Assembly (NCBI GenBank): GCA_035454605.1
Contig: DATIGQ010000162.1
Coordinates: 1 to 44,079 of the forward strand
DNA length: 44,079 nucleotides
Source of the DNA: Terriglobales bacterium
Lineage (GTDB): Bacteria > Acidobacteriota > Terriglobia > Terriglobales > Acidobacteriaceae
Reading direction: 5' to 3'
A program made the position numbers and the translations under genes. Position 1 is the first letter of the stretch, and every line of letters starts with the position of its first letter. The notes below the pieces were generated by a model. It was not told where the DNA came from. It worked only from the letters and a program-made list of their open reading frames with translations, and did not search any database. Below, piece after piece: positions 9,338 to 25,168 of the stretch.

Positions 9338-11383
9338 CTACGGTTGTGAACTGCGAGCGGGTTTGGCGGTTGCCGACGCGGTCCGCCGGACGGGACGGCG
9401 TCGGGGCTTGTCTGCGTGGAGCGCGAGTACGTCCTCCACCGCAGCGCGGAGCAGTTCGGCCACGCTCCATGCCTGGGCAAAGCACCCGCGCGGGCGGTGC
9501 GGAGGTTCAGCATCGAAGATTTCAGAGATTTGGCCGAGTCCGCCCTCTTCCATGTGGCGTCGGAACCCTTCCAGCCACGCCCGGGCCTGCTTGCGTGACT
9601 TGGTTGTGGCACCGTTGGCCTTCACATACGCGGTGAGGAAAGGCCCCATGAGCCACGGCCACACCGTTCCCTGATGATAGGAGGAATCGCGGCTGAACGG
9701 GTCACCCTCGTAGCGCGGGCGGTATTGCGGATCCTTGGGTGTCAGACTCCGCAGACCGACCGGAGTAAGGAGTTCGCGTTCTACGATCTCAAGCATGCGC
9801 CGGGTTTTGTCCAGCGGGAGCATGGTGAAGGGAAGGCTGGCGGCCAGCACCTGATTGGGACGGATGGATGCGTCGCGGTCATCGCCGTGGACTACGTCGT
9901 AGAGACATCCCGCGGATTCGTTCCAAAAAAGCCGGTTGAAGCTGGCACTCGCCTTGGCGGCCATGCCGGCATAACGCTTCGCGGCCTCCGGTTTCTCGAA
10001 GTGGCCGGCAAAGTCCTCCATGATGCGCAGCGCGTTGTACCACAGGGCCTGGATCTCGACCGGCTTGCCGTGGCGAGGGGTGACCACCCAGTCGCCGATC
10101 TTGGCGTCCATCCAGGTGAGCTGTACGCCGGGGACGCCGGCGGCCAGCAAACCGTCCTCTTCCATGCGGATGCCATAGCGGGTCCCGCGAATGTGCCAAT
10201 CGATGATGTCCGTCAGGGCCGGATAGAGTTGCTCCCGGACGAGCGCCACATCTCCCGTGCGGTCGAGATAGGCGCGGATCGCCTCGAAGAACCACAGGGT
10301 GGCATCCACGGTGTTGTACTCGGGCGTTTCGCCGGCATCGGGAAAACGGTTGGGCAGCATGCCCTGGTCCACGTGCTTGGCGAATTCCAGGAGGATGCCC
10401 CGCGCTACGTCGACGCGACCGGTCGCCAGGGTCAGGCCGGGAAGGGCAATCATGGTGTCGCGTCCCCAATCGCTGAACCAGGGATAGCCGGCGATCACGG
10501 TGCTGCCTGCCCCGCGGCGGACAATGTACTGGTCGGCGGCGGCCACCAACTGTCTCACCAGATCGTCGTCGGCTGGAGCCTCGGCGAGGACAGCGTTGCG
10601 ACGGGCGATCTCACGCTGACGGTAGAGGCCCGCGTCCCCGGCGCTGCGTGGCTCGGTGGAGACGATGAGGGTTGCCCCGGCGCGCATGCCCAAGTCGAAC
10701 TTCAGGCGCATGGGGCTGAACAGATCTTCCTGGAAATCCAGGCCGCGCTCGCGTTCCACCGCATACTCGAAGTTGTAGAACCAGTCGCCGGAGGGGTCGA
10801 GCCCGGCAGCGTCGTGGGCGAAATAGAGGGTGGGCGCTCCGTCGTACGGCCGCACTGCCGCCAGGCCCGGCTGCACGTCCACGTTACGGTTCAGTGCGCC
10901 GTTGGCGTGCGTGGTGCTGTGGTAGTCGCGAAAGGCGATGAGCGGCCGGACCTCAAGCTGCGCGCTCGCAAGCGGGCGTTTCGAGCGCACCGCGTATGCC
11001 ACCACTGTGGTGTTCTCGCCCTGCACCAGGAAGACCGATTTCTCGATTTCGATGCCATCCACTTCGTAGGTAAAGATGGGAAACGGGTCGAGGCGGAACT
11101 GCTTCAGGTAGTGGAAGCCCTGGGGGTGAACCACGCCCGGATACTGATTGGCGGAGAGGTCGAAGCGCTGTCCGTCGAGAACCACCGTCTCTTCCAACTT
11201 GGACAGCAACACCATCCGGCCCACCGGCGGATGCGTGGCGGCGGTGAGCAGCCCGTGGTAGCGGCGCGTGTTCAGGCCGACGATAGTAGAGGAAGAGAAA
11301 CCGCCCAGGCCGTTGGTTTCCAGCCATTCCCGTCCCAGCGCTTGGGAGAGGTCATCGCAGATCTCCGGGCCGAAGCGAATCAT
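9338..11383 (-). CDS. Glycogen debranching enzyme (amylo-alpha-1,6-glucosidase, GDE type)
   Basis: This is a glycoside hydrolase of the archaeal/bacterial GDE type (GDE_N plus GDE_C, GH133-like), which removes alpha-1,6-linked glucose from limit dextrins in the cytoplasm. The N-terminal beta-sandwich domain carries REWLETNGLGGFSSSTIVG then NTRRYHGLL, its hallmark. The C-terminal (alpha/alpha)6 barrel has AGYPWFSDWGRDTMIALPGL, PEYNTVDATLWFFEAIRAYL and SSYHQGTVWPWLMGPFLTAY. At 681 aa it is full length for the family; the last 30 residues are a basic low-complexity tail. It is the last gene of the 14-kb minus-strand array and overlaps the 52-aa gene upstream by 4 nt (ATGA). Confidence 0.94.
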   Translation of the reverse strand: MIRFGPEICDDLSQALGREWLETNGLGGFSSSTIVGLNTRRYHGLLTAATHPPVGRMVLLSKLEETVVLDGQRFDLSANQYPGVVHPQGFHYLKQFRLDPFPIFTYEVDGIEIEKSVFLVQGENTTVVAYAVRSKRPLASAQLEVRPLIAFRDYHSTTHANGALNRNVDVQPGLAAVRPYDGAPTLYFAHDAAGLDPSGDWFYNFEYAVERERGLDFQEDLFSPMRLKFDLGMRAGATLIVSTEPRSAGDAGLYRQREIARRNAVLAEAPADDDLVRQLVAAADQYIVRRGAGSTVIAGYPWFSDWGRDTMIALPGLTLATGRVDVARGILLEFAKHVDQGMLPNRFPDAGETPEYNTVDATLWFFEAIRAYLDRTGDVALVREQLYPALTDIIDWHIRGTRYGIRMEEDGLLAAGVPGVQLTWMDAKIGDWVVTPRHGKPVEIQALWYNALRIMEDFAGHFEKPEAAKRYAGMAAKASASFNRLFWNESAGCLYDVVHGDDRDASIRPNQVLAASLPFTMLPLDKTRRMLEIVERELLTPVGLRSLTPKDPQYRPRYEGDPFSRDSSYHQGTVWPWLMGPFLTAYVKANGATTKSRKQARAWLEGFRRHMEEGGLGQISEIFDAEPPHRPRGCFAQAWSVAELLRAAVEDVLALHADKPRRRPVRRTASATAKPARSSQP

Positions 11384-11538
11384 CGCTTCTCCTGGAGCTT
11401 GCGCAGCATGTAGCCCGCATACCAGGTGGGCCAGTCGTCGTCGCGGTGGCCGAGAGTGCGCTCGTAGGTGCCGTGCGCCTGTTCCGCGTCGCGCAGCAGT
11501 TGGGCGAGTTCCGCCTGAGTAAGCTCTTTGAGGGTCAT
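11380..11538 (-). CDS. 52-aa conserved small protein, coupled to debranching enzyme
   Basis: Start MTLKELTQAELAQLLRDAE, then AHGTYERTLGHRDDDWPTWY, ending AGYMLRKLQEKR. A GGGAGAG ribosome-binding site lies 5-10 nt before ATG 11538, and the stop overlaps the debranching-enzyme start in ATGA, so the frame is almost certainly translated. The DDDWPTWYAGYM block resembles a short D-W-x-x-W/F-Y-A-x-Y motif found as a stand-alone peptide or tail in various bacterial proteins; no function is known to me. It is too short to be a domain with a catalytic site and may serve as a partner peptide. Confidence 0.72.
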   Translation of the reverse strand: MTLKELTQAELAQLLRDAEQAHGTYERTLGHRDDDWPTWYAGYMLRKLQEKR

Positions 11539-11548
11539 CCGACTCTCC

Positions 11549-11731
11549 CTACGCGAAGCGAGCTTCGGCCTTGCCGCAGCCGGGGCAGGTATGGGTTTCC
11601 TCGATCAGGCCTCCCAAAGCCGGATCGACCCTCTTCGCCTCCTGAGGGCTGGAGGGATAGATCAGCTTCTCCGCGTGGTGGTTCATCTCCATCTTGCATT
11701 CGGGGCAGACCATTTTCTGCTTGGCGGCCAT
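11549..11731 (-). CDS. 60-aa zinc-ribbon protein
   Basis: A small soluble protein with two CxxC pairs: CPECKMEMNHHAEK near residue 9 and CPGCG near residue 49. It is a likely single-zinc ribbon with a two-histidine insert next to the first pair. It sits 10 bp from each neighbour (FMN reductase upstream, 52-aa protein downstream), so it is an operon member. The role is unknown. Confidence 0.75.
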   Translation of the reverse strand: MAAKQKMVCPECKMEMNHHAEKLIYPSSPQEAKRVDPALGGLIEETHTCPGCGKAEARFA

Positions 11732-11741
11732 GGCATCTTCC

Positions 11742-12308
11742 TTATTCGAGAGTGATGTTCTCGCGCCCGTGGCGCAGTGTCTTGGCCATCCAGATGAGTT
11801 CGCCCAGGAACTTGTCGGCGCGGCGGTAGTAGGCTTCGTCGAGCAATTTGCCGGACTCGTCGAAGGTCTTCGCGACCGTGCCGAAGTTCAGGTCCCAGAA
11901 GATGGGCACCAGGCCCAGCTCGCGCAGCACCGGCACCAAGCTCTGGATGCCCCGCGCGCCGCCGAACGGCCCGGCGGAAACGCCCGCGATGCCCGCTGGC
12001 TTATGGATGTATTCCTTCAGGCAGGAATCGAGCACGTGCTTCAGCAGCCCGGGAAAGCTGTGGTTGTACTCCGGGGAGACGATCACCAGGCCGTCGGCGC
12101 GGTTCATCTTCTCGGAGAATCCGGCGTCCTTGATGGCTTCTCCGGCGTCATCCACCGGGAGCGGCAGCTTGGCGATATCGATCACTTCCGACGTCACGCC
12201 CTTGCGCTTGAGCAATTCGCCGTGGACGAAGTGCGCCACGTGCGCGCTCATGCGCCCCTTGCGCGTGGTGCCCAGGATGACCGGGATGTACAGAGATCGT
12301 TCTTCCAT
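11742..12308 (-). CDS. NADPH-dependent FMN reductase family protein
   Basis: A flavodoxin-fold oxidoreductase (NADPH-dependent FMN or quinone/azo reductase, SsuE/ChrR-like superfamily). The FMN phosphate-binding loop ILGTTRKGRMSAHVA is at residues 11-25 and the second FMN-contact motif SPEYNHSFPGLLKHVLD at about 78-94. Length 188 aa is typical, with no signal peptide, so it acts in the cytoplasm. It starts 9 bp after the glucose-dehydrogenase-type gene; the pairing suggests redox cofactor handling linked to sugar oxidation. The exact substrate cannot be assigned from sequence. Confidence 0.88.
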   Translation of the reverse strand: MEERSLYIPVILGTTRKGRMSAHVAHFVHGELLKRKGVTSEVIDIAKLPLPVDDAGEAIKDAGFSEKMNRADGLVIVSPEYNHSFPGLLKHVLDSCLKEYIHKPAGIAGVSAGPFGGARGIQSLVPVLRELGLVPIFWDLNFGTVAKTFDESGKLLDEAYYRRADKFLGELIWMAKTLRHGRENITLE

Positions 12309-12317
12309 GGCTTGTCT

Positions 12318-13487
12318 TTATCCCAGGGGCGCCACTTCGCAGAACACCTTGATGGCTCCCTTGGCCTCCGTCAGCGTCTGGATGAGCTGCTGGTAGTTCT
12401 CCAGCCCCCGGATGGGGTGAGTGAGCAGCTTGGCGAGCCAGCCAGGATACGCCAACTGCGCCTGTCCAAGATCCTGGACAGCGCGCTCGAAGTCTTCGCG
12501 GCTGGCGTTGACGCTTCCGAACGCTACCTTGTTGCCCAGCACAAAGCCCTGGTTGATGTGGTCGGCGGGAATCTGCAGCACCTTGTCGCCGCCGGTGATG
12601 CTCACCATGGCCAGCACGCCGTTCTTGCCCAGCGCGTCCATGGCTTCAAAGACCAGGCCGGAATTGCCGGTGCCTTCCAGGATGTAATCGAAGGGACCGA
12701 ACTGCTCCGCCGCCTGCTTCAGGCTGGTCTGCTTGGTGCTCACGTAGCGGACGCCGATCTCTTCCAGGAGATTGGAGTTGAGGTACGGGGGTTCGGTGCG
12801 GCCCAGGGCCACGACCTCGAGGCCACGCAGACGCAGGAAGAGTGACGCCAGCAGACCCAGGGTTCCCGTGCCCAGCACGGCAGCACGCTTGGGGCGCCAC
12901 ACCCGCAGGCGTCGCTGGATTTCCCACGCCTGGTTGATCGCTTTCTCAGCCACGCTCGAGGGCTCCAGCAGCACGCCCACTTCTTTCAGCCCGCCGGGCA
13001 CCTTGACGAGGAACTCGGCGGAATCGGCGTAATACTCAGCCAGGTAGCCGTGGCGCAGGTTGATGCCGCGCTCGAAGTAGGTGTCGTCGGTGGTCATGTC
13101 CTGCAAGCCGATCTTGTCGTAAATGCTCGACCCGGGACGGCGCACGGAAGCCACCACGTAATCGCCGGGCTGGAACTCGACCACGCCCGGTGCGACCGCT
13201 TCCACCTGGCCGAAGCTTTCATGGCCGAGGATGAGGTACTCATCGCCCGGTGGCGGAGCGCCGTACTCGGCGGCGTTGATTTCCTTGTCTGTTCCGTCCA
13301 CGCCCACGCGCAGCACTTTGACGCGCACGCCCCGGCCATCGGCGACGTCTTCCAGGCGTGGCTTGGGGACTTCCCGCAGGTGGATGCTGCCCGGCTTGCC
13401 GGGGATGACCGCGATGGCCTTCATCGTGGTCTGGGCCGCCTTCCTTTCCGTCTCCGTAGCTGATTCGGTTTCTGCAACACCCTTCAT
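12318..13487 (-). CDS. Glucose 1-dehydrogenase-type zinc-dependent MDR oxidoreductase
   Basis: A medium-chain dehydrogenase similar to archaeal glucose 1-dehydrogenase, which oxidises glucose to gluconolactone with NAD(P)+. Visible features: [12 protein letters not shown] and LGHESFGQV (substrate/zinc region), [35 protein letters not shown], a Rossmann glycine motif [13 protein letters not shown], and a C-terminal [18 protein letters not shown] block seen in GlcDH. In the usual GlcDH zinc-ligand position, the C-G-T-D/C-x-D motif is VDGTDKE here, so the catalytic Cys is replaced, as in several GlcDHs that use Asp and His. I take ATG 13487 (GAGGAG 6 nt upstream), which leaves a 21-residue extension before the usual MKAIAVIPG start. 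It is a member of the long minus-strand array. Confidence 0.87.
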
Positions 13488-13536
13488 GATGTCTCCTCGC
13501 AGGCTCCCATCTGAGATTCCGACGGGGCAAAAAAGT

Positions 13537-16308
13537 TCAGCCGCCGACCTTGGTTTCTTCCAGTTCCGGCTTGGCCGCGGGTCGCCGCCGGCGCTCTCCC
13601 CGCCGGGTTTCCCGCTCAGCGCTCTGCTGGATCAGCTTGGCGACCACACCCGTCCAGCCGGTCTGGTGGTTGGCGCCCACACCCGAGCCATTGTCGCCGT
13701 GAAAGTACTCATAGAAAAGGATGTGATCGCCCCAGTTGGGATCCCGCTGCAAATCGCCCCAGTGCTGATGCACGGGCCGGCGTCCCTGGCCGTCGCGCAG
13801 GAAGATGCGGGTCAGGCGCCGCGAGAGTTCCATCGACACCTCCCACAAGGTCATCATCTGGCCGGAACCGGTGGGACACTCCACCTTGTAGTCGTCACCC
13901 AGATAGTGGTGGAACTTCTGCAGCGACTCGATGAGCAGGAAATTCACCGGGAACCAGATGGGGCCGCGCCAGTTGGAGTTGCCCCCAAAGAGGCCAGTCG
14001 AAGACTCAGCAGGTTCGTAGTCAACGCGGTATTCGTGGTCGTCCAGGTGCAGCACATAAGGTTCGCGCAGGTGCCTGCGAGAGACGGCGCGAATGCCGTG
14101 TGGCGAGAGGAATTCGTTCTCGTCCAACATGATGTGGAGCACGCGGCGCAGCTTGTCGCGATCCACGATGGAGAGCAGGCGGCGCTCGCCACGTCCAGGC
14201 GTGCGCATGCAGGCCACGTTCGCAATCAGGTCGTGACGGTAGTCAACGAACCATTCCAGTCGGCGGGTGAAACCGGGCAGATGCCTCAGGGTTTCGGGCT
14301 CCAGGGTATCCACGGCGAAGAGCGGAATCAGGCCCACCATGGAGCGGATCTTCATGGGTTCGAAGCGGCCGTCGGGAAAATGCAGGGCGTCGTAGTAGAA
14401 GCCGTCCTCATCGTCCCACAAGCCCATGCCGTTGTGGCCCAGATGGTTCATCGCGTACGCGATGTTGATGAAGTGCTCCCAGAACTTGCTCGCCACGTCC
14501 TCGTACGCCGGATCATGCAGGGCAAGTTCCTTGGCGATGGCCAGCAGGTTAAGCGTGTACATCGCCATCCAGGACGTGCCGTCGGACTGTTCCAGGTGTC
14601 CGCCGGTGGGCAGGGGCGCGCTGCGATCGAATACGCCGATGTTGTCCAGGCCGAGGAAGCCGCCCTGGAATATGTTCATGCCCTCCGCGTCCTTGCGGTT
14701 CACCCACCAGGTGAAGTTCAGCAGCAGCTTGTGGAACACGCGCTCCAGGAACTGGAGGTCGCCCTTGCCGCGGCGCTTCTTGTCGATCTTGTAGACCCGC
14801 CAGGCTGCCCAGGCGTGCACCGGCGGATTCACATCGCCGAAGGCCCACTCGTAGGCCGGGATCTGCCCGTTGGGGTGCATGTACCACTCCCGCAGCATGA
14901 GAATGAGCTGGTCCTTCGCGAAGTCCGGATCCACCAGCGCCAGCGGGATGCAATGGAAAGCCAGGTCCCAGGCCGCGTACCACGGGTATTCCCACTTGTC
15001 CGGCATGGAGATCACGTCGGCGTTGTAGAGGTGCATCCACTCGTGGTTGCGGCCGTTCTTGCGTTCCGGCGGCGGTGGCAGCTGGCCCGGGTCGCCCTCC
15101 AGCCACTGCTTCACCACGTAGTGGTAGAACTGCTTGGACCACAGCATTCCGGCGAAGGCCTGGCGGGCCACCGCCTGGGCGTCGTCGGAGATGTCCTGGG
15201 GAATCACGGTCGCGTAGAACTCGTCGGCCTCGCGCTTGCGGTCGGCGAAGACGCGGTCAAAGGCGCCGCCGAACACGCTCGCGCCCGCCGGCAGTTCCTG
15301 GTCCGTCAGGCGTAGTTGGATCGTGACTTCCTTTCCCGCGGCCACCTCGAGCATGTAGTGAGCGGCGGCCTTGGTGCCCGTCTGTGCCGGATTCACCTTG
15401 TCGCGCGCGCCCTGCGCAACGCAGTCGTTGATGCCGTCCTTGACGTAGGGAGTCGGATTGGGGCTGCCGAACAGCCGCTCGTCGTTGGTTTCGTTTTCCG
15501 TGAAGAGCAGTTCCGGGCGGCCCTCGCAGTACAGCCAGCGGTCTCCATAATGGTGGTGCGTGAGCTCGACCACGGCGGCGGGCGCGCGCTTGGCGTCACG
15601 CCGCAACTGCGGGCGCGGCTCGCCGGCGCCCCAGGACCAGGTGTTGCGGAACCAGACCGTAGGCAACAGGTGCAGCTTGGCCGCCTCCGGTCCCCGGTTG
15701 GCCACCGTGACCTTGATCAGGATGTCTTCCGGGCCGGCCTTGGCGTATTCCACGAACACGTCGAAGTAGCGGTTCTCCTCGAAGACGCCGGTATCCAGCA
15801 GCTCGAACTCCGGCTCGCCCCGGCCGCGGCGGCGATTCTCTTCCGCCAGCCGCCCGTAAGGGAACTCCGCCTGTGGATACTTGTAGAGGAACTTCATGTA
15901 GGAGTGGGTCGGCGTGGAGTCGAGATAAAAGTACAGTTCTTTGACATCCTCGCCGTGGTTGCCTTCGTTGCCGGTCAGCCCGAACATGCGCTCCTTGAGG
16001 ATGGGGTCGCGTTCGTTCCACAGCCCAAGCGCAAAACAGATGTACTGATGGCGGTCCGAGATGCCGGCCAGCCCGTCTTCGTTCCAGCGATAGACGCGGG
16101 AACGAGCGTGGTCATGAGGGAAAAACTCCCAGGCGGTGCCGTACGCGCTGTAGTCCTCACGCACCGTGCCCCAGGCGCGTTCGGAGAGGTAGGGGCCCCA
16201 GCGGCTCCAGTAGGCCTTGCGCTCGCGGTTTTCCTCCAGGCGTTGCTCTTCCGCGGTGAGTGGGCGATTCGTCACAGATGCCTCTCTCGTGGTGGATCTA
16301 GAACTCAT
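13537..16308 (-). CDS. MGH1-type glucosidase (GH63-related, 923 aa)
   Basis: A large (alpha/alpha)6-barrel glycoside hydrolase of the MGH1/GH63-like superfamily, members of which cleave alpha-glucosidic bonds in mannosyl-oligosaccharides or glucosylglycerate-type substrates. The N-terminus has [20 protein letters not shown] and [20 protein letters not shown]. The barrel shows [20 protein letters not shown], where the Asp is a candidate general acid, [40 protein letters not shown] and [13 protein letters not shown]. No signal peptide, so it is probably cytoplasmic. The ATG at 16308 overlaps the upstream VOC stop; a GTG at 16275 with a better GAGAGAGG site is an alternative start. The actual substrate is not decidable from sequence. 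Confidence 0.88.
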
Positions 16309-17333
16309 TTTTCAGCGACCTCCAGGACGTGTCCGTCCCCATCGCGCACCAGCAGGGCCCTGCGATATCCCGTCTCCGCTTTCGGCAGTGAGATGACGCC
16401 GCTGGAAACGAAAGCGACGTGCCCGCCACGCAGCAGGCGCGCAGCAGCTTCGGCGTCGAGCGTGACCAGGCGCGTCTGCCGGTGCACCAGGTCGTTGGCC
16501 TTTTCGTCCAGCGGAAAAGGCCGGCCATCGCGCGGAGACAGGTACTCCAAGAGCTCGATGCCGGGGCCGGAGGCGGCGCGCAGCGCCGTGATTCTGAGCC
16601 GTGCCCCGAATACGTTGTTCAGGCGTTCTTGTTCGGGACCGTAGTTCTCGCTCTCCCCCACCACCCGCATGCCCATAAGAGTCCGGTAGAGCTTCAAGGT
16701 TTCATCCGTATTCCAGACCACGATGGCGGTGTGGTCGATGCCCAGGAACAACCGGTCGGATGGCCTATGCCACTTGGGGTCGCCTTTGCCGGCCGGGAAC
16801 TCAAGGATCTCCAGCGGGTGACCGTCGGGGTCCTTGAAATAGAAGGCTTTGATGCCGCCTGCGTTCGGGTTCCAGTCCGGCAATCGCTGCGGCCCGGTCG
16901 AGGCATGCTCGACCTTGAATTCCCGCAAGCGGCGGTAGGCAGCGTCCATGTCACGCACGATGATGGCCACATGCTGGAACCACCGATCGTTGGATCGCGA
17001 GTCAACCGGAATCGGCCGGCCCTTGGGCGCAAGGTACTCGGTCAGCTCGATGAACTCGTCCCCCAGCCGCAAGCGGACCACGCGCATACGCAGGCCGAAC
17101 ACGCCCTGCAAGTGCTCGTAGTCGTCGCCCGCGACCTCCACATCCGAGACTTTTTCGAAGGTCAGAACTTTGGAATAGAAGTCCACCGTGCGGTCCATGT
17201 CGGAAACGGTCATGTTGACCGAGTCCACGGCCACCACCAGCGGTTGCTGCGCCGCGAGTGGCAGCGCGAGGAGCAGCAGTGCCAGCCCTATGGCTAGACG
17301 GTGCTTCATTCGCATTGATCGATCCATGTTCAT
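16305..17333 (-). CDS. Exported double-VOC (glyoxalase-fold) protein
   Basis: A signal peptide ([21 protein letters not shown], ending about residue 29) is followed by two vicinal-oxygen-chelate modules, about residues 33-180 and 195-342. Each starts with the fold's typical opening ([20 protein letters not shown] and [20 protein letters not shown]) and ends near a metal-site glutamate ([19 protein letters not shown]). Both resemble lactoylglutathione-lyase/dioxygenase-type VOC proteins, but the sequence is too diverged to assign a reaction. It is predicted to act outside the cytoplasm. Several in-frame ATGs near the start leave the exact start uncertain. It lies between the GMC dehydrogenase (28 bp upstream) and the glucosidase (4-bp overlap). 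Confidence 0.85.
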
Positions 17334-17361
17334 CGCTGCGGGCCTGCGGCCAGGTTATGCG

Positions 17362-18924
17362 CTACTTCAACCGTTGCATCAGGTGATCGCCCACGCGTAG
17401 GGCGTTCGCCATGATGGTGAGCCCCGGGTTCACCGCGCCGCTCGAGGGGAAAAAGCTCGCGTCGACTATGTAAAGGTTGTCCACTTCGTGGGCTTTGCAG
17501 TTCACGTCGAGCGCCGAGCTCTTGGGGTCTTTGCCGAAGCGGACGGTGCCATTCTGGTGTGCTACTCCTGCCAGCGGGATTCTCTGTCCTACGAACAGGC
17601 TGCGCCCGAACAAGCCGACGTGGCACTGGTGTCCATGCTCGTGGCACTTGGTTTGCTGGTTCAGCAGGTCCTTGAGCTTGGCGATGAGGCGGTTGTGGCC
17701 TTCCTCGTTGTTGGGCTTGTAGCTGAGGACGATGTTGCCCTCGCGGTCGAGCGTGACGCGGTTGTTCGGGTCGGGCAGATCTTCGGAAGTCAGCCAGAAA
17801 TCCAGCGAATGGTTGGCCATCATTTCCAGCGTGAAGCCCGGAGTCAGCGGTGGCGCTCCCGCCTTGAGCGTCTCGCCGTCCAGCTTGCCCACGAACGAGA
17901 TATGGCCCATGGGATATTCCCATTCTTTGGAGCCGAGATAGAAATCGTTCACCGCCAGCGTCTTCTGAAACACCGTCGGGTTGGGACATTTGGAGATGGC
18001 CATCTGCACCGAGTTGACGTGGCCCATGTAATGGCGTCCCACCGTGTCGGAACCGTTGGCCAGGCCGCGCGGATGCTTCTCGTTGGCGGAGCGCAGTAGC
18101 AGGGCAGCTGAGTTGATGGCGCCGCAGGACACCACCACCACGTCGGCGCTGTATTCCTCCTGCTTGCCGTTACGCTGCACCACCACCTTGGTGACCTTGC
18201 GGCCGGAAGCATCGGTTTCCAGGCGCTCCGCCTTGGCGTTGGTCAGCAACGTGACGTTGGGATGCGCCAGCGCCGGGTCAACCGCACAAACCTGGGAGTC
18301 CGACTTGGCCAGGACCAGGCAAGGGAAGCCATCACACGTGTTGCAGCGGATGCACTTGCTGGTGCGCGGGTTCTTCTCGTCCAGCATCACGCCCACGGGT
18401 ACGTGGAACGGTTTCAGACCGTGACGAGCGAAGTCGTCGTGTAACTGCTGGATGCGCCACTCGTGGCTCACCGGGGGATGCGGATACGGGCCGCTGGCCG
18501 GGGGATCGGTGGGATCCTCGCCGCGCAGGCCGTGCACGTGGTAGAGCTGCTCGGCCTGGAGGTAATACGGCTCCAGTTCCTCGTAGGAGATCGGCCATGC
18601 CGGCGAAATACCGCCGTGATGTTTGATCTCGCCGAAGTCTTCCTTGCGCATACGGAACAGCGCTGCTCCGTAGAACTTGGTGTTGCCCCCGACGTAGTAG
18701 TTGGTGTGCGGGTGCAGCTCCTTGCCGTCCTTGTCGCGCCACTTCTCCTTGGTCTGGTAAAAGCCTTCCACGTTGACCGACCGTGGGTCCCAGTTCTTCT
18801 TCTCGCGAGGGACGTAGTCGCCGCGCTCCAGCACCAGGATCTTCTTGCCGGAAGGAGCCAGCTTGTAGGCCAGCGTGCCGCCGCCCGCACCCGTGCCGAT
18901 GATGATCACATCGTACTTTTCCAT
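17362..18924 (-). CDS. GMC-family FAD-dependent sugar/alcohol dehydrogenase
   Basis: An FAD flavoprotein of the glucose-methanol-choline family, comparable to the catalytic subunit of bacterial FAD glucose/gluconate-type dehydrogenases. The Rossmann motif DVIIIGTGAGGGTLAYKLA is at residues 5-23, the GGNTKFYGAALFR FAD-contact block at 79-91, and the C-terminal VDASFFPSSGAVNPGLTIMA active-site region is intact. A cysteine cluster C191, C194, C197, C202, C213 (KCIRCNTCDGFPC) could hold an iron-sulfur centre, as in FAD-GDH-type enzymes. I start it at ATG 18924 behind GGAG, not at the longer open frame to 19098 that would overlap the previous gene. No Tat or Sec signal is seen, unlike its exported neighbours. 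It starts 14 bp after the gluconolactonase gene. Confidence 0.92.
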   Translation of the reverse strand: MEKYDVIIIGTGAGGGTLAYKLAPSGKKILVLERGDYVPREKKNWDPRSVNVEGFYQTKEKWRDKDGKELHPHTNYYVGGNTKFYGAALFRMRKEDFGEIKHHGGISPAWPISYEELEPYYLQAEQLYHVHGLRGEDPTDPPASGPYPHPPVSHEWRIQQLHDDFARHGLKPFHVPVGVMLDEKNPRTSKCIRCNTCDGFPCLVLAKSDSQVCAVDPALAHPNVTLLTNAKAERLETDASGRKVTKVVVQRNGKQEEYSADVVVVSCGAINSAALLLRSANEKHPRGLANGSDTVGRHYMGHVNSVQMAISKCPNPTVFQKTLAVNDFYLGSKEWEYPMGHISFVGKLDGETLKAGAPPLTPGFTLEMMANHSLDFWLTSEDLPDPNNRVTLDREGNIVLSYKPNNEEGHNRLIAKLKDLLNQQTKCHEHGHQCHVGLFGRSLFVGQRIPLAGVAHQNGTVRFGKDPKSSALDVNCKAHEVDNLYIVDASFFPSSGAVNPGLTIMANALRVGDHLMQRLK

Positions 18925-18938
18925 GACGTTGTTCTCCG

Positions 18939-20549
18939 TTACGGCCGGACGCCGGCAATGTTCAGCCGCATCCGGTAGAGGCTGCTGCGTCCGCACAAGT
19001 AGAGCGTTTTTCCGTCTTCGTCGCCCCACGCCATGTTGTGCACGTGGCGGGGCGCAAGGATGGTTCCCAAATGCTTGCCCGCGGCCGAGATCACCCACAG
19101 CCCGCCCGGCCCGGAAACGTACAGGTTGCCCGCCTGGTCTACCTTGATGCCGTCCAACGCGTCTTCACCCTTGGCTGCCGTCATATCGAAGAACACCTGG
19201 CCGTTCGCCAGGGTGCCGTCGGGCTTCACTTCATAGCGCATCACGACCTTCTTCTTCTCATCCCAGTTGCCGACGTAGAGATATTTCTCGTCGGGAGAGA
19301 AGGCGATGCCGTTGGGCCCCTTCAGGTCGGTGGAGACCAGAGTGAGTTTGCCGTCCGTCGAGATACGGAACACGCCCTCGAAGGGAAGCTGCCGGCGCGG
19401 ATCATCATAGAACTTCGGCAGCCCGAACGGCGGATCGGTGAAGTACAGAGAGCCGTCGGACTTGTAAACCAGGTCGTTGGGGCTGTTGAGCCGCTTGCCC
19501 TGGTAGTTGTCGGCCAGCACCGTGACCTTGTCGTCCTTTTCCAGCCGCGAGACGCGGTGGTTGCCGTGCTCGTTGATGGTGAGGCGGCCTTCGCGGTCGA
19601 GGGTCAGGCCGTTCGAACCGGGCTGCCCGTACTCCGCGATGTCCGCGCCCGAGTAGCCGCTGGGCGTGCGGAAAACGCTGAGTTCACCGTCCTTCGTGTA
19701 CTTGTAAATGGTGTTGCTGTTGGGATCGCTGAACAGCAGATACTCGCCCTGGCGCACCCAGATGGGTCCTTCAGTGAACTTGAAGCCCTCCGCCAGCTTG
19801 AAGATTTTCGGATTGGGTCCGACGATGGCGTCCATCGCCGGATCGAGACGCTGCACTTCCACATTCACTTCCGCCGGGGTCACGGCCCGTGGCCCGTGCG
19901 TACCCGCGTAGAACTCCAGTCGGGCGTACCGCATCCAGATGAAGTTCGTGGGCGGGTTCGAAAGCGGTCCGTTGATGCCGAACACAGCAAGTTGGATCTG
20001 CTGGCCCGGTTTGACGTCGCGGCCGATGATGAGCCGGTTGGGCGCGTTCCAGCCCGAGACCACCGAGCCCCCCATCTGGCCAAGAGCCCGCGAGAGCTCG
20101 CCGTCCACCCAGATTTCGGCGTAGTCGTCGAGCGCAGTTTCGAACACCACCGTCGAGCCCGTCGCATCGAAGTCGCCGACACGCTCCGGAATGGTCAGCC
20201 GGATGCGATACCAGTTGAAGCCGAGACGTCCGAAGCCGCGGCGTGCGTTGAGCGTCGTAGGCTCGATGACCGGCCATGCGGAGTCGTCGAAGTCCGCCCC
20301 GCCGGCGTGCGGCGTGTAGTCGTAGGTCTTTACGGGAGCGCCGCTCGGCTGGTTGTCAGGGCCGGGTCCGCGGAAATCCACCTCGATGATCTTGGTGTCG
20401 CTGTACCGCCACGTTCCTTTTACCAGCGCCGCGCCCTCGTTCGTGGCCAGGTCGATGGTACCCAGCGGCTTGCCCGCGGGCGCATCGGCGACGGTTTGTG
20501 CGTGCGCCCAACCCGCGAGCGCCAGCAGCACGATTGCCAGGTATCTCAC
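18939..20549 (-). CDS. SMP-30/gluconolactonase with extra N-terminal beta-sandwich domain
   Basis: An exported (signal peptide MRYLAIVLLALAGWAHA, cut about residue 17) protein with two parts. Residues about 45-225 form a galactose-binding/jelly-roll-like module (DDSAWPVIEPTTLNARRGFG, VVFETALDDYAEIWVDGEL), similar to sugar-binding modules. Residues about 245-530 are a six-bladed SMP-30 lactonase: EGPIWVRQGEYLLFSD, GSNGLTLDREGRL, LNSPNDLVYKSDGSLYFTDP, GPNGIAFSPDEKYLYV and DGIKVDQAGNLYVSGPGG, with the metal-binding Glu, Asn and Asp positions present. It would hydrolyse aldonolactones made by sugar dehydrogenases. The stop lies 14 bp before the GMC gene; the start overlaps the HbpS stop by 4 nt. 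The N-terminal addition makes it longer than the 300-aa family norm. Confidence 0.91.
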   Translation of the reverse strand: MRYLAIVLLALAGWAHAQTVADAPAGKPLGTIDLATNEGAALVKGTWRYSDTKIIEVDFRGPGPDNQPSGAPVKTYDYTPHAGGADFDDSAWPVIEPTTLNARRGFGRLGFNWYRIRLTIPERVGDFDATGSTVVFETALDDYAEIWVDGELSRALGQMGGSVVSGWNAPNRLIIGRDVKPGQQIQLAVFGINGPLSNPPTNFIWMRYARLEFYAGTHGPRAVTPAEVNVEVQRLDPAMDAIVGPNPKIFKLAEGFKFTEGPIWVRQGEYLLFSDPNSNTIYKYTKDGELSVFRTPSGYSGADIAEYGQPGSNGLTLDREGRLTINEHGNHRVSRLEKDDKVTVLADNYQGKRLNSPNDLVYKSDGSLYFTDPPFGLPKFYDDPRRQLPFEGVFRISTDGKLTLVSTDLKGPNGIAFSPDEKYLYVGNWDEKKKVVMRYEVKPDGTLANGQVFFDMTAAKGEDALDGIKVDQAGNLYVSGPGGLWVISAAGKHLGTILAPRHVHNMAWGDEDGKTLYLCGRSSLYRMRLNIAGVRP

Positions 20550-21028
20550 CGGATGGCCGCCTCCGTGGCGGCCGCGCCGACCTTCGCGATGTCCTCGTCC
20601 TCCTGCGGAGTGTTGCCGCTCACGCCGATGGCGCCGATCACTTTGCCATTCACCGTGATGGGCACACCGCCTTGCAGCGGTGTCGCGCCGGGCAGCACCA
20701 GAGAGGCCAGGCGGCCGTTCTTCACCTGCTCCTCAAAGGCTCCGCTCGGACGGCGGAAGATCGCCGCCGTGCGTGCCTTGCCCATGGCGACCTCGACGCT
20801 CGCCACCTGCGTGTCATCCAGGCGTTCGAGCACGATGAGGTAGCCCCCGTCATCCACCACCGCGATCACCACGGTAGAGCCGCGCTTCAAAGCTTCCGCT
20901 TCGGCGGCGGCAGCGATCTTCTTCGCCGCCTCCAGGGTCAGGACTTGCTTCCGTGGCAGCTCCGCCCCCAGAGGCAGGGCCGCCACGACCATCAGCAGCG
21001 TTGTCGCTAGTGTGCGTAGAGTCTTCAT
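20546..21028 (-). CDS. Exported GlcG/HbpS heme-degrading-type protein
   Basis: A 160-aa protein with a signal peptide (residues 1-22) and a single GlcG/HbpS domain: LTLEAAKKIAAAAEAEALKR, VVIAVVDDGGYLIVLERLD, VAMGKARTAAIFRRPS and GGVPITVNGKVIGAIGVSG. Members of this family bind heme or act as accessory proteins of sugar or glycolate oxidation. It overlaps the gluconolactonase start (ATGA at 20546-20549) and lies 12 bp from a larger paralogue fused to a cupin, so the two are neighbours by duplication. Presumed periplasmic; biochemical role not proven. Confidence 0.9.
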   Translation of the reverse strand: MKTLRTLATTLLMVVAALPLGAELPRKQVLTLEAAKKIAAAAEAEALKRGSTVVIAVVDDGGYLIVLERLDDTQVASVEVAMGKARTAAIFRRPSGAFEEQVKNGRLASLVLPGATPLQGGVPITVNGKVIGAIGVSGNTPQEDEDIAKVGAAATEAAIR

Positions 21029-21040
21029 GGGTTTCTCGGC

Positions 21041-21901
21041 CTACCGCACCTTCACCACGTAGTACAGGAAGGGATTGCTGACTTCCTTGAACAGGTGGGG
21101 CGTGTTGTTGGGCACGATGATGACGTCGCCCTTCTTCAGCATGCGGGTTTCCCCGCCCTCGATGGTTGCGCCGCGGATCTCGTCCGCTGCGATGTTCTTG
21201 GGATCAACCACCGTACCGCCCGTGACGAAGGTCGCCGTCCCCTCGAGCACATAGATGATGTCGGCGTCGTTGTTGTGCACTTCGGCCTGGCCGGGTTTTT
21301 CGCGCCGGCTGGCGTGCACCATGTAGTTGCGTCCCTGGCCATCGAACAGGACCGCGCCCTTGGCGAAGGCCGCGGACACCTGGTCCTTGTCGAAATGGCT
21401 GACGGGCGCCGCCGCCATCGGGCCGGAGAGCGAGTTGGCGCCGGCGATAGCCAGTTCTTCGTCCTGCGCCGCGCTGGCCGCGCCGCTCACGCCCACGCCG
21501 CCCACCACCTGGTTGTCCACCACGATGGGCACGCCGCCGATCAGCGGGGTGAAGTCGTTGAGCGCGGTCATCACCGTGCGGCCCTTGCCGCTGGAGTTGA
21601 TCAGCTCTTCGAAGAAGCGCGTCGGCCGCTTGAACTGCACTGCGGTGCGCGCCTTGCCGATGGAGATGTTGGCCCCGGCGGCGAACGTGCCGTCCAGGCG
21701 CTCCAGCGCCATCAGGTTGCCGCCGTCATCCACCACGGCGATCACGCCGCCGGGTGCGTTGAGCTTTTGGGCTTCTGCCTTGGCGGCCGCGATCACTTTG
21801 CGGGCACCGTCCAGCGTCAGCGATTTCTTTTCCGCGATCTGCGCGGAGGCCGCTGCGGCCATCAGTGTCGCAGCGATCAGGGCTAGGAGGATTTTCTTCA
21901 T
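21041..21901 (-). CDS. Exported HbpS-cupin fusion protein
   Basis: A 286-aa exported protein (signal peptide residues 1-20) fusing a GlcG/HbpS domain (about 24-158; VIAVVDDGGNLMALERLDG, IGKARTAVQFKRPTRFFEEL, GGVPIVVDNQVVGGVGVSG) to a C-terminal cupin (about 185-286). The cupin shows EVHNNDADIIYVLEGTA (with H209) and GDVIIVPNNTPHLF (with H269), which together give the usual two-histidine metal site. The fusion pairs a heme-binding module with a metal-dependent one. It precedes the single-domain HbpS gene by 12 bp and follows the DM13-like gene by 79 bp. No family name is known to me for this arrangement; the role is inferred only from context. Confidence 0.88.
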   Translation of the reverse strand: MKKILLALIAATLMAAAASAQIAEKKSLTLDGARKVIAAAKAEAQKLNAPGGVIAVVDDGGNLMALERLDGTFAAGANISIGKARTAVQFKRPTRFFEELINSSGKGRTVMTALNDFTPLIGGVPIVVDNQVVGGVGVSGAASAAQDEELAIAGANSLSGPMAAAPVSHFDKDQVSAAFAKGAVLFDGQGRNYMVHASRREKPGQAEVHNNDADIIYVLEGTATFVTGGTVVDPKNIAADEIRGATIEGGETRMLKKGDVIIVPNNTPHLFKEVSNPFLYYVVKVR

Positions 21902-21980
21902 GTCACACGCTCATTGGTTTCTGGCGCGGGCCTGGAGGAAGGTTGACCTCCTGGCCCGCTCCGGGTTTCCGACAGGTTGC

Positions 21981-22463
21981 TTACATTACGGGCTTTTCGA
22001 ACGAAGCCTCGCCCAGGTCCACTTCTGCCCAGGCGCAGTAGATGATCACTTTGGCGACGTCCTTGATATAGGCGGGCAGGCGGATCTGTTTCTTCAGCTT
22101 GTCTTCGGGCTTCATGTCGCCGCCGCCCATGCTCATGCCGTCGCCCGCGCCCTTCACTTTCAAACGACCGAGGTCATACACCACTCCCTTCGAGTCCACT
22201 ACCTGCCAGTGCGGATCGGGACTTCCGGGAGCGACGAAGTCATCGGAGAGCGTCAGAACGTTGATCTTGCCCTCCTTGCTGTGGATGACGTGGCCGCCGT
22301 TGACCGCCTTGCCCTTGAAGGTTGTGCTGTGGTGCGCGGCCATCATCTTGTCGTCCTTCATCATCTTGTCCTGGGCGAAGCTGGAAGCGCCCAAAGCCAG
22401 GATGATCGCGAACGTAGTCAGAGCCGTGGTTACGACTTGCTTGCGGTTGTGCATCAGATTCAT
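21981..22463 (-). CDS. Exported single-domain DM13-like protein
   Basis: A 160-aa protein with a signal peptide (residues 4-31, ending ASSFAQ) and a region (about 48-155) resembling the DM13 fold: FKGKAVNGGHVIHSKEGK, LTLSDDFVAPGSPDPHWQV, YDLGRLKVKG and KVIIYCAWAEVDLGEASF. The cysteine in the YC position aligns with the conserved cysteine of DM13 domains, proposed to be redox active. A Met/His-rich linker follows the signal (DKMMKDDKMMAAHH), which could bind copper. It lies 38 bp after the tandem-DM13 gene. Similarity is inferred from pattern and should be confirmed by profile search; AAGGAG lies very close to the ATG, so M4 may be the start. Confidence 0.75.
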   Translation of the reverse strand: MNLMHNRKQVVTTALTTFAIILALGASSFAQDKMMKDDKMMAAHHSTTFKGKAVNGGHVIHSKEGKINVLTLSDDFVAPGSPDPHWQVVDSKGVVYDLGRLKVKGAGDGMSMGGGDMKPEDKLKKQIRLPAYIKDVAKVIIYCAWAEVDLGEASFEKPVM

Positions 22464-22501
22464 TTCTCCTTTTGGTTACGACGTTAGTCTTGTGCGAACT
22501 G

Positions 22502-23350
22502 TTAGGACTTCGGCGTCAGCGGCGCCGTGGCAAAGTTCACGCTGAACCGTTTGCACCACACGGCGACGGACTGATACTTGGCCAGGTCGAGGTCTTGGGG
22601 GAGCTCGTAGTTCTGGTCGCCCTTGTTGCCCTTGAGCGCGCCCAGATCCACGAAGCCGGCCTTCTTGACGCTGTCGCTGTCCGCGGCATCCGCAGCCGCC
22701 ACCGCGTAAACGTGCAGCTCGGGACCGTTGGAGGTCTCGAACTCGGTGAACCGCAGGATGCGGCGGCCGTCGGCCAGTTCATGCACCATGGCGTAGCCCT
22801 GGGCGTCGTGCGCCACCTTGTGGAACTCACCCGCCGCCACCAGCTTCTGGGGCGTAGCCGGAATGGCGTTGCCCGCGACCAACGGAGCGGCGCCGAAATT
22901 CACGCTGAACCGCTTGCACCAGATCACTACGGAGTTGTACTTCTCTACGTCCAGGTCCGCGGCCAGCTCGTAATTCTGGTCGCCCTTGTTGCCCTTGATC
23001 GTGCCCAGGTCGACGAAGCCGCCATTGGTTACGGTTTCGTTATCCAGCGCGTCCGGCGCCACCGCCAGGTAGACGTGCACGTCGGGCCCGTTCGAGGTCT
23101 CGAAGTTGCTCAGGCGCAGTACGTGCTTGCCGTCCGCCAGCCGGTGGATGGTGGCCATGCCGCGCGTCTGGTGGGCGCCGTCGTGGAATTGCCCCATGCG
23201 GAGCTGGGTGGAGGCCGAGGCCGCCTGCGTTTCCGGGAACTGCTCATTCACGGTCACGTTGGTGAACAGGCGCTCCGGGCGGAACGCGTACCACAATCCG
23301 AACACCACCGCTGCCGCGATCACTGCGATCACAAGCTTGCGTGCTTGCAT
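22502..23350 (-). CDS. Membrane-anchored tandem DM13 domain protein
   Basis: A 282-aa protein with an N-terminal membrane anchor (residues 5-21) followed by two copies of the DM13 domain (about 52-152 and 174-273). Both copies share GFVDLG(T/A)(I/L)KGNKGDQNYEL followed by WCKRFSVNF, with the conserved cysteines C145 and C266. DM13 is a predicted electron-transfer domain found with redox proteins. The ATG at 23350 sits 8 nt after AAGGAG; a TTG two codons upstream is too close to it. This is the first gene of the 14-kb array, with a perfect dyad about 37 bp upstream. Function is inferred from fold and neighbours. Confidence 0.85.
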   Translation of the reverse strand: MQARKLVIAVIAAAVVFGLWYAFRPERLFTNVTVNEQFPETQAASASTQLRMGQFHDGAHQTRGMATIHRLADGKHVLRLSNFETSNGPDVHVYLAVAPDALDNETVTNGGFVDLGTIKGNKGDQNYELAADLDVEKYNSVVIWCKRFSVNFGAAPLVAGNAIPATPQKLVAAGEFHKVAHDAQGYAMVHELADGRRILRFTEFETSNGPELHVYAVAAADAADSDSVKKAGFVDLGALKGNKGDQNYELPQDLDLAKYQSVAVWCKRFSVNFATAPLTPKS

Positions 23351-23577: not shown

Positions 23578-24405
23578 CTATCCGCCGTTTGCCATCTCGC
23601 CAAAGCGGCAGCGGAAAATGCAGCGTTCCGTGTTGTGGTGGTGATACTTGGCGCACAATACGGAACGCGCGCCCTTCCAGCGAACGTAGGTCTCCGCCGC
23701 CAGCAACATGCCCAGCGGTGGAGCCAGGAAATACAGCCAGAGACTGTCGAACACCGCGGCCGGCAGCGCCGAGCCCAGGGTTCGCGCCGGATTCATGCTC
23801 ATACCTGAGAGCGGCGCTTCCACGGAGATGTACGTAGCCAGCAGCAGGCCCGCGAATATGCCCGTGTAGTGCGAAAGCCGCGGGTGATTGGTAGTGATAA
23901 GCACCATGGTCATCAGCAGGAATGAGATGACCACTTCGCCCAGGAACGCGATCGCCGGCCCGTCCGGTCCCGGCAGGGTGACGGCGTAGTTCACATTCGG
24001 GTGTGCCAGCGTCTGCCGCAGCACCAGCCAGGAAACCACTACGCCGGCCACTCCGCCGGCGAACTGTGCCGCCATGTAGAAGAACGCGTCCCAAGGCGCT
24101 ACCTTGCCCAGACGTGCGAACGTCAGCGTGAAGGAGGGATTCATGTGCGCCCCGGAGCGCTTCCCCAGCGGCGAGTGGATCAGCGCGATGGCCGTGAGCC
24201 CCATGGCCACTCCCGTCAGGACCCGGCGGACTACTCCGTCCGGAATCGCCTGGCGCAACGGGGAGGATGGATGTTCCAGCAGCGCTGTGAACATGCACGC
24301 CGACACCATGAACAGCCCCAGCAGCGTGGCTTCGATCAGGTATTCGGGCCAGTGTCGGGCCAGTGCGTCGCCGGGTGAGGAAGCCGGTGGTGAGTTGTCT
24401 GCCAT
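23578..24405 (-). CDS. Aquaporin/MIP-family channel with Cys/His-rich C-terminus
   Basis: A six-helix MIP channel for water or small neutral solutes. Both pore loops are visible: the first reads HMNPSF, with serine replacing the usual alanine of NPA, and the second is the canonical MNPAR (GMSMNPARTLG). Hydrophobic segments frame the loops as expected. The last 35 residues after the sixth helix carry CAKYHHHNTERCIFRC, a Cys/His cluster not part of the normal family, which could bind a metal. I choose ATG 24405 (MADNSPPASS, GGCGG upstream); the frame is open further up to 24591, but these residues look non-coding. It lies 227 bp upstream of and on the same strand as the DM13-led array; whether it is co-transcribed is unclear. 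Confidence 0.9.
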   Translation of the reverse strand: MADNSPPASSPGDALARHWPEYLIEATLLGLFMVSACMFTALLEHPSSPLRQAIPDGVVRRVLTGVAMGLTAIALIHSPLGKRSGAHMNPSFTLTFARLGKVAPWDAFFYMAAQFAGGVAGVVVSWLVLRQTLAHPNVNYAVTLPGPDGPAIAFLGEVVISFLLMTMVLITTNHPRLSHYTGIFAGLLLATYISVEAPLSGMSMNPARTLGSALPAAVFDSLWLYFLAPPLGMLLAAETYVRWKGARSVLCAKYHHHNTERCIFRCRFGEMANGG

Positions 24406-24568
24406 CCGCCGGGTGAGATGCGGCGCGGGAAGAATCGTTTCGGTCCGTCTCGGCCATAAAAAAGTCATAAAGATTGCTTGTAACTTCCACAGGCCCCGGG
24501 AATCCCATTGCTCGGGTCCGGTCTCCCGCGCGGGATTACGTATCTGAACGCGCGGGGTGGAGGACGCC

Positions 24569-25055: not shown

Positions 25056-25083
25056 TTGCTATTGCCGCGCGGAGTCCTATAAT
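25056..25083 (+). promoter_or_regulatory. Promoter upstream of the ECF sigma gene
   Basis: TTGCTA (25056-25061), 16 nt and a perfect TATAAT (25078-25083). The -10 overlaps an in-frame ATG at 25082, so that ATG cannot be the start of a transcript from this promoter. Confidence 0.6.
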
Positions 25084-25168
25084 GAGTTACCCTTCGGTTA
25101 CTCCCGGGCCGCAACTCGGTGATGCGCGGGATCGGTCGCGGAGTCCAAGAAGGACGCCGAGACCATCT

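What the first reader, a model, noticed from the sequence alone, without database searches (positions are those of the whole stretch)
9338..23350. A 14-kb single-strand array coupling sugar dehydrogenases with DM13 and HbpS/cupin exported proteins
Thirteen consecutive minus-strand genes from the tandem-DM13 protein to the debranching enzyme have gaps of at most 79 bp or overlapping start/stop codons. The set combines a GMC dehydrogenase, gluconolactonase, glucose-1-dehydrogenase-type enzyme, FMN reductase, two glycoside hydrolases, two HbpS proteins and two DM13-type proteins with conserved cysteines. I infer a pathway that releases sugars, oxidises them and passes electrons via exported redox/heme proteins. 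The coordinated pairing of DM13 domains with HbpS and a GMC enzyme is not one I know as a described system.
Basis: partly seen in the sequence, partly recalled or inferred. Interest (0 to 1): 0.75.

Follow-up and report, generated by a model that had tools for sequence, protein, structure and literature searches.

The report
Widespread sugar-oxidation gene cluster with DM13 proteins
A run of 13 adjacent bacterial genes turns out to be the local version of a gene cluster shared by many bacterial phyla, probably used to release sugar inside the cell, oxidise it and protect the cell envelope; no description of it was found and its exact chemistry is untested.

Summary
In detail: 13 minus-strand genes lie between 9338 and 23350, with gaps of at most 79 bp, and the gene names are right, including a second, divergent DM13 protein. 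The array is not a local accident. In 99 relatives a close GMC orthologue occurs in 11; the VOC gene occurs in exactly those 11, and full-length lactonase and HbpS-cupin in the same 8 of them and in none of the other 88. Around 80 GMC orthologues with about 14 phylum-level labels, VOC is present in 66, an aquaporin-family gene in 56, GH63-like hydrolase in 53, debranching enzyme in 37 and a DM13 gene in 34; two flanking control genes in 0. The real unit is wider than reported (the aquaporin lies outside the interval) and modular. GMC, the hydrolases and the Zn dehydrogenase show no export signal, so the proposed path from GMC to exported DM13/HbpS is unsupported; in three of seven named plasmids read, a GMC relative adjoins terminal-oxidase genes. 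I favour cytoplasmic sugar release and oxidation feeding quinones, with DM13/HbpS/lactonase as an envelope module. DM13 models show a Cu/Zn-SOD-like fold. My paper searches found no description.

The parts
22502..23350 (-). DM13x2: membrane-anchored protein with two DM13 domains, one Cys each; predicted Cu/Zn-SOD-like fold
   Evidence: PF10517 4.9e-52; one N-terminal hydrophobic segment; AF2 pLDDT 88.6; SOD Z 10.8
21981..22463 (-). Divergent single DM13-type protein with a signal-like N-terminus
   Evidence: no Pfam hit; hhalign to DM13 E 4.2e-7; SOD-like fold Z 8.3
21041..21901 (-). HbpS domain plus cupin, signal-like N-terminus
   Evidence: PF03928 4.2e-32, PF07883 2.2e-8; nearest PDB EfgA 6bws 2.1e-15
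20546..21028 (-). HbpS protein, signal-like N-terminus
   Evidence: PF03928 2.4e-36; in one open frame with the lactonase in L081
18939..20549 (-). SMP-30/gluconolactonase-type lactonase with an extra N-terminal domain, signal-like N-terminus
   Evidence: PF08450 3e-39; PDB 3e5z 2.9e-38
17362..18924 (-). GMC oxidoreductase, no evident signal peptide, C192/C195/C198/C203 cluster, H457/N500
   Evidence: PF00732/PF05199 (on the longer ORF); FAD-GDH 8hdd 7.2e-38; four Cys in 80 of 81 rows, 1 gap
16305..17333 (-). Double-VOC protein, signal-like N-terminus
   Evidence: PF00903 1e-19; in the same 11 of 99 relatives as GMC
13537..16308 (-). GH63/MGH1-like glycoside hydrolase, no evident signal peptide
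   Evidence: PF22422 4.6e-21, PF03200 1.3e-6; 53 of 80 loci
12318..13487 (-). Zn-type NAD(P) glucose dehydrogenase
   Evidence: PF16912 2.8e-46
11742..12308 (-). FMN reductase-like flavoprotein
   Evidence: PF03358 8.3e-28
11549..11731 (-). 60-aa protein with two CxxC pairs, next to FMN reductase in other phyla
11380..11538 (-). 52-aa ORF, seen only in the sister species L030
   Evidence: 83% identity in L030; 0 of 80 loci
9338..11383 (-). Amylo-alpha-1,6-glucosidase (GH133 debranching enzyme)
   Evidence: PF06202 1.7e-131, TIGR01561 above cut-off
23578..24591 (-). Aquaporin-family channel (MIP), outside the reported interval; pore filter G/I/M/R
   Evidence: PF00230 2.5e-26; 56 of 80 loci; filter kept in 43-46 of 46
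25082..25846 (+). ECF sigma factor, divergent from the array
   Evidence: PF04542, PF08281
25840..26694 (+). zf-HC2 anti-sigma-type protein with a MEDS (DcmR-type) sensory domain
   Evidence: PF14417 2.4e-15, PF13490 1.1e-7

Best explanation
The array is the local version of a modular gene cluster shared across phyla. Core: aquaporin-family channel, GMC dehydrogenase, double-VOC protein and alpha-glucan hydrolases (GH63-like and debranching enzyme), with an NAD(P) glucose dehydrogenase (Zn type or SDR type). Add-on: an envelope module of DM13, HbpS(-cupin) and lactonase. Most likely working: in the cytoplasm the hydrolases free glucose or a similar sugar from storage glucan or an oligosaccharide (inferred); the Zn/SDR dehydrogenase oxidises it with NAD(P) and the GMC enzyme with FAD; GMC passes single electrons through an iron-sulphur site made by its conserved Cys cluster into the quinone pool and terminal oxidases (inferred). 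In the window the set is probably controlled by the divergent ECF sigma/MEDS anti-sigma pair (inferred). The exported DM13 (SOD-like barrel with one invariant Cys), HbpS, lactonase and VOC proteins act in the envelope on lactones, reactive carbonyls or oxidants rather than as the main electron wire (inferred). Shown here: gene content, order, cross-phylum conservation, co-occurrence, absence of evident export signals on the enzymes, Cys conservation and the DM13 fold prediction.
For: VOC in exactly the 11 of 99 relatives that hold a close GMC; lactonase and HbpS-cupin in the same 8. Counts around 80 orthologues, with PiT and PhoU at 0 of 80 as negative controls; MIP-GMC same strand within 1500 bp in 43 of 56 and GMC-VOC in 55 of 66 loci with both. 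Homologues of 12 of the 13 array genes plus MIP on one strand in a Dadabacteria locus, L112, and of eight plus MIP in an NC10 locus, L056. Azospirillum brasilense p3: SDR-aquaporin-GMC-VOC-FAD oxidoreductase-debranching enzyme-glucosidase in a row. GMC relatives next to terminal-oxidase genes in Streptomyces canus (with gluconokinase, GH15, SDR), Trichormus variabilis and Roseomonas, and about 4 kb away in Paraburkholderia fungorum. zwf/pgl/gnd-type pentose-phosphate genes beside the cluster in two KSB1 loci (named by eye, no family search). GMC closest in PDB to FAD-GDH/FDH, whose 3Fe-4S Cys lie in the aligned loop. NDH-2-type gene in 16 and SDR in 17 of 80 loci.
Against: No substrate or acceptor is shown. 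No terminal oxidase lies beside the window's GMC, and I recognised none among the recurrent families around the 80 orthologues (not every family was annotated). The GMC of Roseomonas lacks the Cys motif, and the third Cys is replaced in Acidiphilium, Paraburkholderia and Streptomyces. Lactonase and VOC look exported here while GMC does not, so the lactonase may not act on GMC's product; in Paraburkholderia and Roseomonas the SMP-30 and VOC proteins, and in Acidiphilium the VOC protein, have no obvious signal. Priestia megaterium has a GMC relative with none of the partners. Nearly all loci are metagenome bins.
Confidence: 0.45

Rival explanations
1. One reading: exported DM13 and HbpS proteins are the electron acceptors of the GMC and other sugar dehydrogenases, forming an envelope electron chain.
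For: DM13x2 within 1500 bp of GMC on the same strand in 14 of 17 loci with both; DM13 said to be predicted to act in redox or electron transfer (PMC4140639, passages); one invariant Cys per DM13 alignment; Rieske plus ferric-reductase transmembrane protein in 11 of 80 loci; elsewhere a DM13 gene lies near Rieske, 2Fe-2S and MsrA genes in a Nostoc plasmid.
Against: GMC, GDH and hydrolases have no evident export signal; no PF13618 exporter found in the genome; no CXXCH protein nearby; most clusters lack HbpS, and the annotated Azospirillum stretch shows no DM13, HbpS or lactonase gene; whole-genome search of 15 cluster-bearing genomes found PF10517 in 5 only (DM13b-type proteins not counted).
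Confidence: 0.12
2. Carbonyl/oxidant stress unit: the cluster senses and removes reactive aldehydes, lactones or oxidants, and sugar oxidation only supplies reducing power.
For: ECF sigma with MEDS-type anti-sigma; HbpS-cupin nearest in PDB to the formaldehyde sensor EfgA (PMC8153426, passages); VOC family; DM13 SOD-like fold; MsrP/MsrQ-like and MsrB-type genes beside some clusters; MbnB-type family in four loci.
Against: The EfgA match is weak and its ligand residues are said to be largely conserved in DUF336 homologues; Msr-type genes were seen in few loci; the MEDS-protein query hits 9 of 80 loci only.
Confidence: 0.22
3. A loose carbohydrate neighbourhood: genes of separate functions kept near each other and exchanged together, without one pathway.
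For: Modularity and swaps (GH63, GH15, other hydrolases; Zn-GDH or SDR) across loci; DM13-HbpS association not significant in kinship-independent pairs (median p 0.125).
Against: Perfect co-occurrence of VOC with GMC and of HbpS-cupin with lactonase in relatives; short gaps and overlapping genes; similar sets on one strand in different phyla.
Confidence: 0.15

Closest known systems
FAD-dependent glucose dehydrogenase / fructose dehydrogenase complexes (Burkholderia FAD-GDH, Gluconobacter FDH)
   Same: GMC catalytic subunit, conserved His/Asn pair, Cys cluster in the loop that aligns with the 3Fe-4S loop
   Different: no hitchhiker subunit found in the genome, no c-type cytochrome nearby, different Cys spacing, no export signal
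DM13 domain proteins (insect Knickkopf, bacterial DM13 proteins)
   Same: two PF10517 domains with the invariant Cys
   Different: no DOMON domain found; beside GMC, VOC and lactonase genes
HbpS/GlcG/EfgA (DUF336) family
   Same: PF03928 domain
   Different: HbpS-cupin fusion with a signal-like N-terminus in a sugar-oxidation cluster; ligand unknown
Cu/Zn superoxide dismutase fold
   Same: predicted barrel, Z 10.8, rmsd 2.9, 109 aligned residues (3km1)
   Different: no detectable sequence relationship (hhalign E 0.042, probability 1.3)

Membership tests
FAD-GDH/FDH-type dehydrogenase complex | GMC-type FAD catalytic subunit | tested here: met
   PF00732/PF05199; 8hdd 7.2e-38
FAD-GDH/FDH-type dehydrogenase complex | Fe-S cluster bound by Cys of one loop | tested here: inconclusive
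   four Cys in 80 of 81 rows at the aligned loop; cluster not demonstrated; spacing differs; the Roseomonas relative lacks the motif
FAD-GDH/FDH-type dehydrogenase complex | hitchhiker (gamma) subunit PF13618 | tested here: not met
   0 matches in the genome (98% complete draft); found in 2 of 14 control genomes
FAD-GDH/FDH-type dehydrogenase complex | multihaem cytochrome c subunit next to it | tested here: not met
   no open frame of 60 aa or more with CXXCH in 8000-27000; rest of the genome not tested
DM13 domain family | PF10517 above cut-off, 22502-23350 | tested here: met
   175.4 bits against 25
DM13 domain family | PF10517 above cut-off, 21981-22463 | tested here: not met
   no Pfam hit; related by profile comparison only
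Cu/Zn superoxide dismutase | SOD-like beta barrel | tested here: met
   predicted models only; Foldseek E-values not significant
Cu/Zn superoxide dismutase | SOD sequence family | tested here: not met
   no PF00080 hit at E 0.01; hhalign probability 1.3
HbpS-like family | PF03928 above cut-off | tested here: met
   125 and 111.3 bits against 25
HbpS-like family | haem binding or degradation | not testable with these tools
   needs protein
GH133 debranching enzyme | TIGR01561 above cut-off | tested here: met
   499.7 against 364.15 bits
Gluconolactonase | SMP-30 propeller, PF08450 | tested here: met
   135.6 bits against 26.3

The most novel reading that the evidence does not exclude
A horizontally spread respiratory island in which an Fe-S GMC dehydrogenase burns stored sugar in the cytoplasm alongside a dedicated aquaporin-family pore, while DM13 proteins, a Cys-bearing offshoot of the Cu/Zn-SOD fold, form with HbpS and lactonase a new envelope redox device (metal, haem or thiol based). 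This would give DM13 its first bacterial pathway.
Probability: 0.15. Interest if true: 0.8.

Novelty: new variant of a known kind. Interest (0 to 1): 0.55.

Why it matters
A GMC dehydrogenase that keeps 69-82% identity to the window's across about 14 phylum-level labels, with steady partners and no description in the searches made, points to a common piece of soil and groundwater carbon metabolism that annotation shows only as scattered enzyme names. It gives DM13, a domain of unclear function also found in animals (PMC4140639, passages), a bacterial gene context and a predicted fold, so its function becomes testable. A cultured carrier of the core, Azospirillum brasilense, makes a genetic test practical.

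Tried and rejected
GMC export by a Tat signal or hitchhiker: no suitable N-terminus in the window protein (25 of 67 orthologue N-termini were printed, none checked with a signal predictor), and PF13618 was not found. A c-type cytochrome acceptor: none nearby. A DM13b-lactonase fusion in L101: the DM13 part lacks its Cys strand, so I treat it as a deletion or misassembly. Sequence homology of DM13 to Cu/Zn SOD: none detectable (in one search my pattern caught one SOD out of 20 loci, redone with 21 sequences). Equivalence of the DM13 Cys with SOD copper ligand His120 rests on strand order and recalled SOD numbering only; no coordinates were available. PDB search with the DM13 profile gave nothing; with the single DM13x2 sequence nothing. 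GH63 had no PDB match by sequence. Promoter/terminator scan uninformative. Ten paper searches: no paper in the library holds two of DM13, GlcG and gluconolactonase, none holds both GMC oxidoreductase and Rokubacteria, one search listed one archaeal genome paper without the GMC term (listing only, not read), none; subscription journals are mostly missing.

In 40 loci with more than 8 kb on both sides: VOC 37, MIP 35, GH63 32, GDE 24, either DM13 19, GDH 18, HbpS 13, lactonase 12. Of the 90 plasmid records with a GMC hit I read the annotation of seven (H1, H3, H8, H9, H18, H20, H22). Two further records were read for DM13 (H54, H58); their stretches show no GMC. Fisher tests take related species as independent.


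Full report
Observation. The window is one whole 44-kb contig (C162) of a 3.29-Mb draft genome (98% complete). The 13 genes are real and tightly packed. Transcription order: DM13x2, DM13b, HbpS-cupin, HbpS, lactonase (SGL), GMC, double VOC, GH63-like, Zn glucose dehydrogenase, FMN reductase, 60 aa, 52 aa, debranching enzyme. Upstream and co-directional lies an aquaporin-family gene (23578-24591), then, divergent, an ECF sigma factor and an overlapping zf-HC2/MEDS protein. The 227-bp gap between aquaporin and DM13x2 keeps a 19-base identical block (GCATCTCACCGCCCGAATC) in the sister species L030, so a promoter there is possible.

Conservation near home. In 100 genomes (own plus 99 relatives) GMC hits fall into two groups: 11 relatives at 73-97% identity, and 14 with hits at 64% or less. 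VOC occurs in exactly the same 11. Lactonase with its N-terminal domain and HbpS-cupin occur in the same 8 of 11, and in 0 of 88 others. PF10517 occurs in 8 of 11 and in 3 of 88. Fisher p values: 8e-15, 1e-9, 1e-9, 1.5e-7 (species are related, so these are optimistic). Of the three DM13 genomes without a close GMC, one is 53% complete, one has aquaporin, DM13 and sigma/MEDS-type genes at a contig end, and one (G091) has DM13 in another setting. Counting DM13b too, 10 of 11 have a DM13-type gene on the GMC contig; in G089 it lies about 30 kb away beside HbpS-cupin and lactonase. Nine loci with a distant GMC (48-62%, one of them a second copy in G048, some on short contigs) show none of the queried partners except one aquaporin (L048).

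Conservation far away. The 80 best loci of a GTDB scan carry about 14 phylum-level labels, 42 of them Acidobacteriota; two of the isolates among them are Anaeromyxobacter oryzae (MIP, GDH, GH63) and Granulicella mallensis (MIP, VOC, GH63). Presence within 10 kb or to the contig end: VOC 66, MIP 56, GH63 53, GDE 37, GDH 28, SGL 22, DM13b 19, DM13x2 17 (either DM13: 34), HbpS 16, FMN reductase 7, 60-aa 6, 52-aa 0, PiT 0, PhoU 0. DM13 is rare in genomes at large: 11 of 297 in the phylum sample. Against a general DM13 role: PF10517 was found in 5 of 15 cluster-bearing genomes searched whole. HbpS and lactonase lie within 1500 bp on one strand in 13 of 13 loci with both, and share one open frame in L081. 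On the GMC tree, HbpS-cupin and lactonase change together in independent pairs (median p 0.031); HbpS-cupin with DM13 goes the same way without reaching significance (median p 0.125). Acidobacteriota do not form one side of the tree (13 changes), which suits transfer but does not prove it, since bins can be mixed. L112 (Dadabacteria) has homologues of all array genes but the 52-aa one, plus the aquaporin, on one strand.

Cultured bacteria. Azospirillum brasilense p3 has SDR-aquaporin-GMC-VOC-FAD oxidoreductase-debranching enzyme-glucosidase in a row, with a signal-like N-terminus on VOC and the same pore filter by eye. Streptomyces canus, Trichormus variabilis and Roseomonas have GMC relatives (51-59%) next to terminal-oxidase genes, and P. 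fungorum has such an operon about 4 kb away; gluconokinase, GH15, SDR, DoxX, cupin and SMP-30 occur among them. Acidiphilium cryptum has SDR, GMC, glycosyl hydrolases, DoxX, cupin and VOC. Priestia megaterium shows none of these partners. Seven of 90 records were read.

The GMC enzyme. It is nearest to FAD-GDH and FDH in the PDB. Its four Cys are kept in 80 of 81 rows (1 gap) and align with the loop whose Cys212, Cys218 and Cys222 hold the 3Fe-4S cluster of Burkholderia GDH (PMC6719666, passages). Three of the four remain in Acidiphilium, Paraburkholderia and Streptomyces; the motif was not found in Roseomonas. A second C-x2-HGH-x-CH insert occurs in 54 of 81 rows, meaning unknown.

DM13. Both AF2 models (pLDDT 88.6 and 79.4) match Cu/Zn SOD best on realignment: for DM13x2 Z 10.8 (3km1, rmsd 2.9, 109 aligned), with all 42 listed rows at Z 8.3 or more being SOD or its copper chaperone; for DM13b Z 8.3 (4bd4, rmsd 3.0, 93 aligned), where GH2 and other beta-sandwich rows follow closely. 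Foldseek alone is weaker: best E 0.0095 for DM13x2, to an unrelated hydrolase, with SOD second (E 0.016, probability 1.00), and best E 0.43 for DM13b. No sequence link to SOD was found. By strand order the invariant Cys ends strand 7, where SOD has copper ligand His120 (recalled); this is a hypothesis.

Mechanism. Shown: gene content, order, co-occurrence, enzymes without evident export signal, signal-like or anchored N-termini on DM13, HbpS, SGL and VOC. Inferred: glucan or oligosaccharide hydrolysis, sugar oxidation, Fe-S transfer to quinone, ECF control, envelope protection.

Noticed in passing
window 25840-26694 (+) and 24746-24997, 26705-27007 (+): Anti-sigma-type zinc finger fused to a MEDS (DcmR-type) sensory domain, overlapping an ECF sigma gene; further zf-HC2-type small proteins flank it.
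   Followed up: partly
window 23578-24591: Aquaporin-family channel with a G/I/M/R pore filter kept in 43-46 of 46 homologues, unlike the GlpF or AqpZ filters as recalled; filter positions set by motif offset.
   Followed up: partly
window 17362-18924 (near GMC residues 428-436): C-x2-HGH-x-CH insert in 54 of 81 GMC rows, absent from the distant relatives in alignment A1; could bind a metal.
   Followed up: partly
L084, L102, L104, L122: MbnB/TglH/ChrH-type RiPP enzyme family with a recurrent partner gene near GMC; reminiscent of copper-related RiPP clusters (recalled).
   Followed up: no
L081:17277-18879 and L112:7533-8225: MsrP/MsrQ-like pair (molybdopterin and ferric-reductase domains) and an MsrB-type (SelR) protein beside the cluster.
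   Followed up: no
L081:8523-9260 and similar ORF L082:2748-3545: Spondin_N-like protein with a signal-like N-terminus near the HbpS/lactonase module; below the Pfam cut-off in L081, no hit in L082.
   Followed up: no
L130 (G091), 8290-11133: Two DM13 genes beside a propeller protein and a DoxX-like protein (names by eye) in a genome without the close GMC orthologue.
   Followed up: no
L145 (Streptomyces cadmiisoli) and L146 (Nostoc sp. ATCC 53789) plasmids: DM13 genes away from GMC: near VOC, Tat and CcdA genes in one, near Rieske, 2Fe-2S and MsrA genes in the other.
   Followed up: no
window 24569-24670 (+): 33-aa ORF with a CxxC, well conserved with the sister species, overlapping the annotated start of the aquaporin gene.
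   Followed up: no
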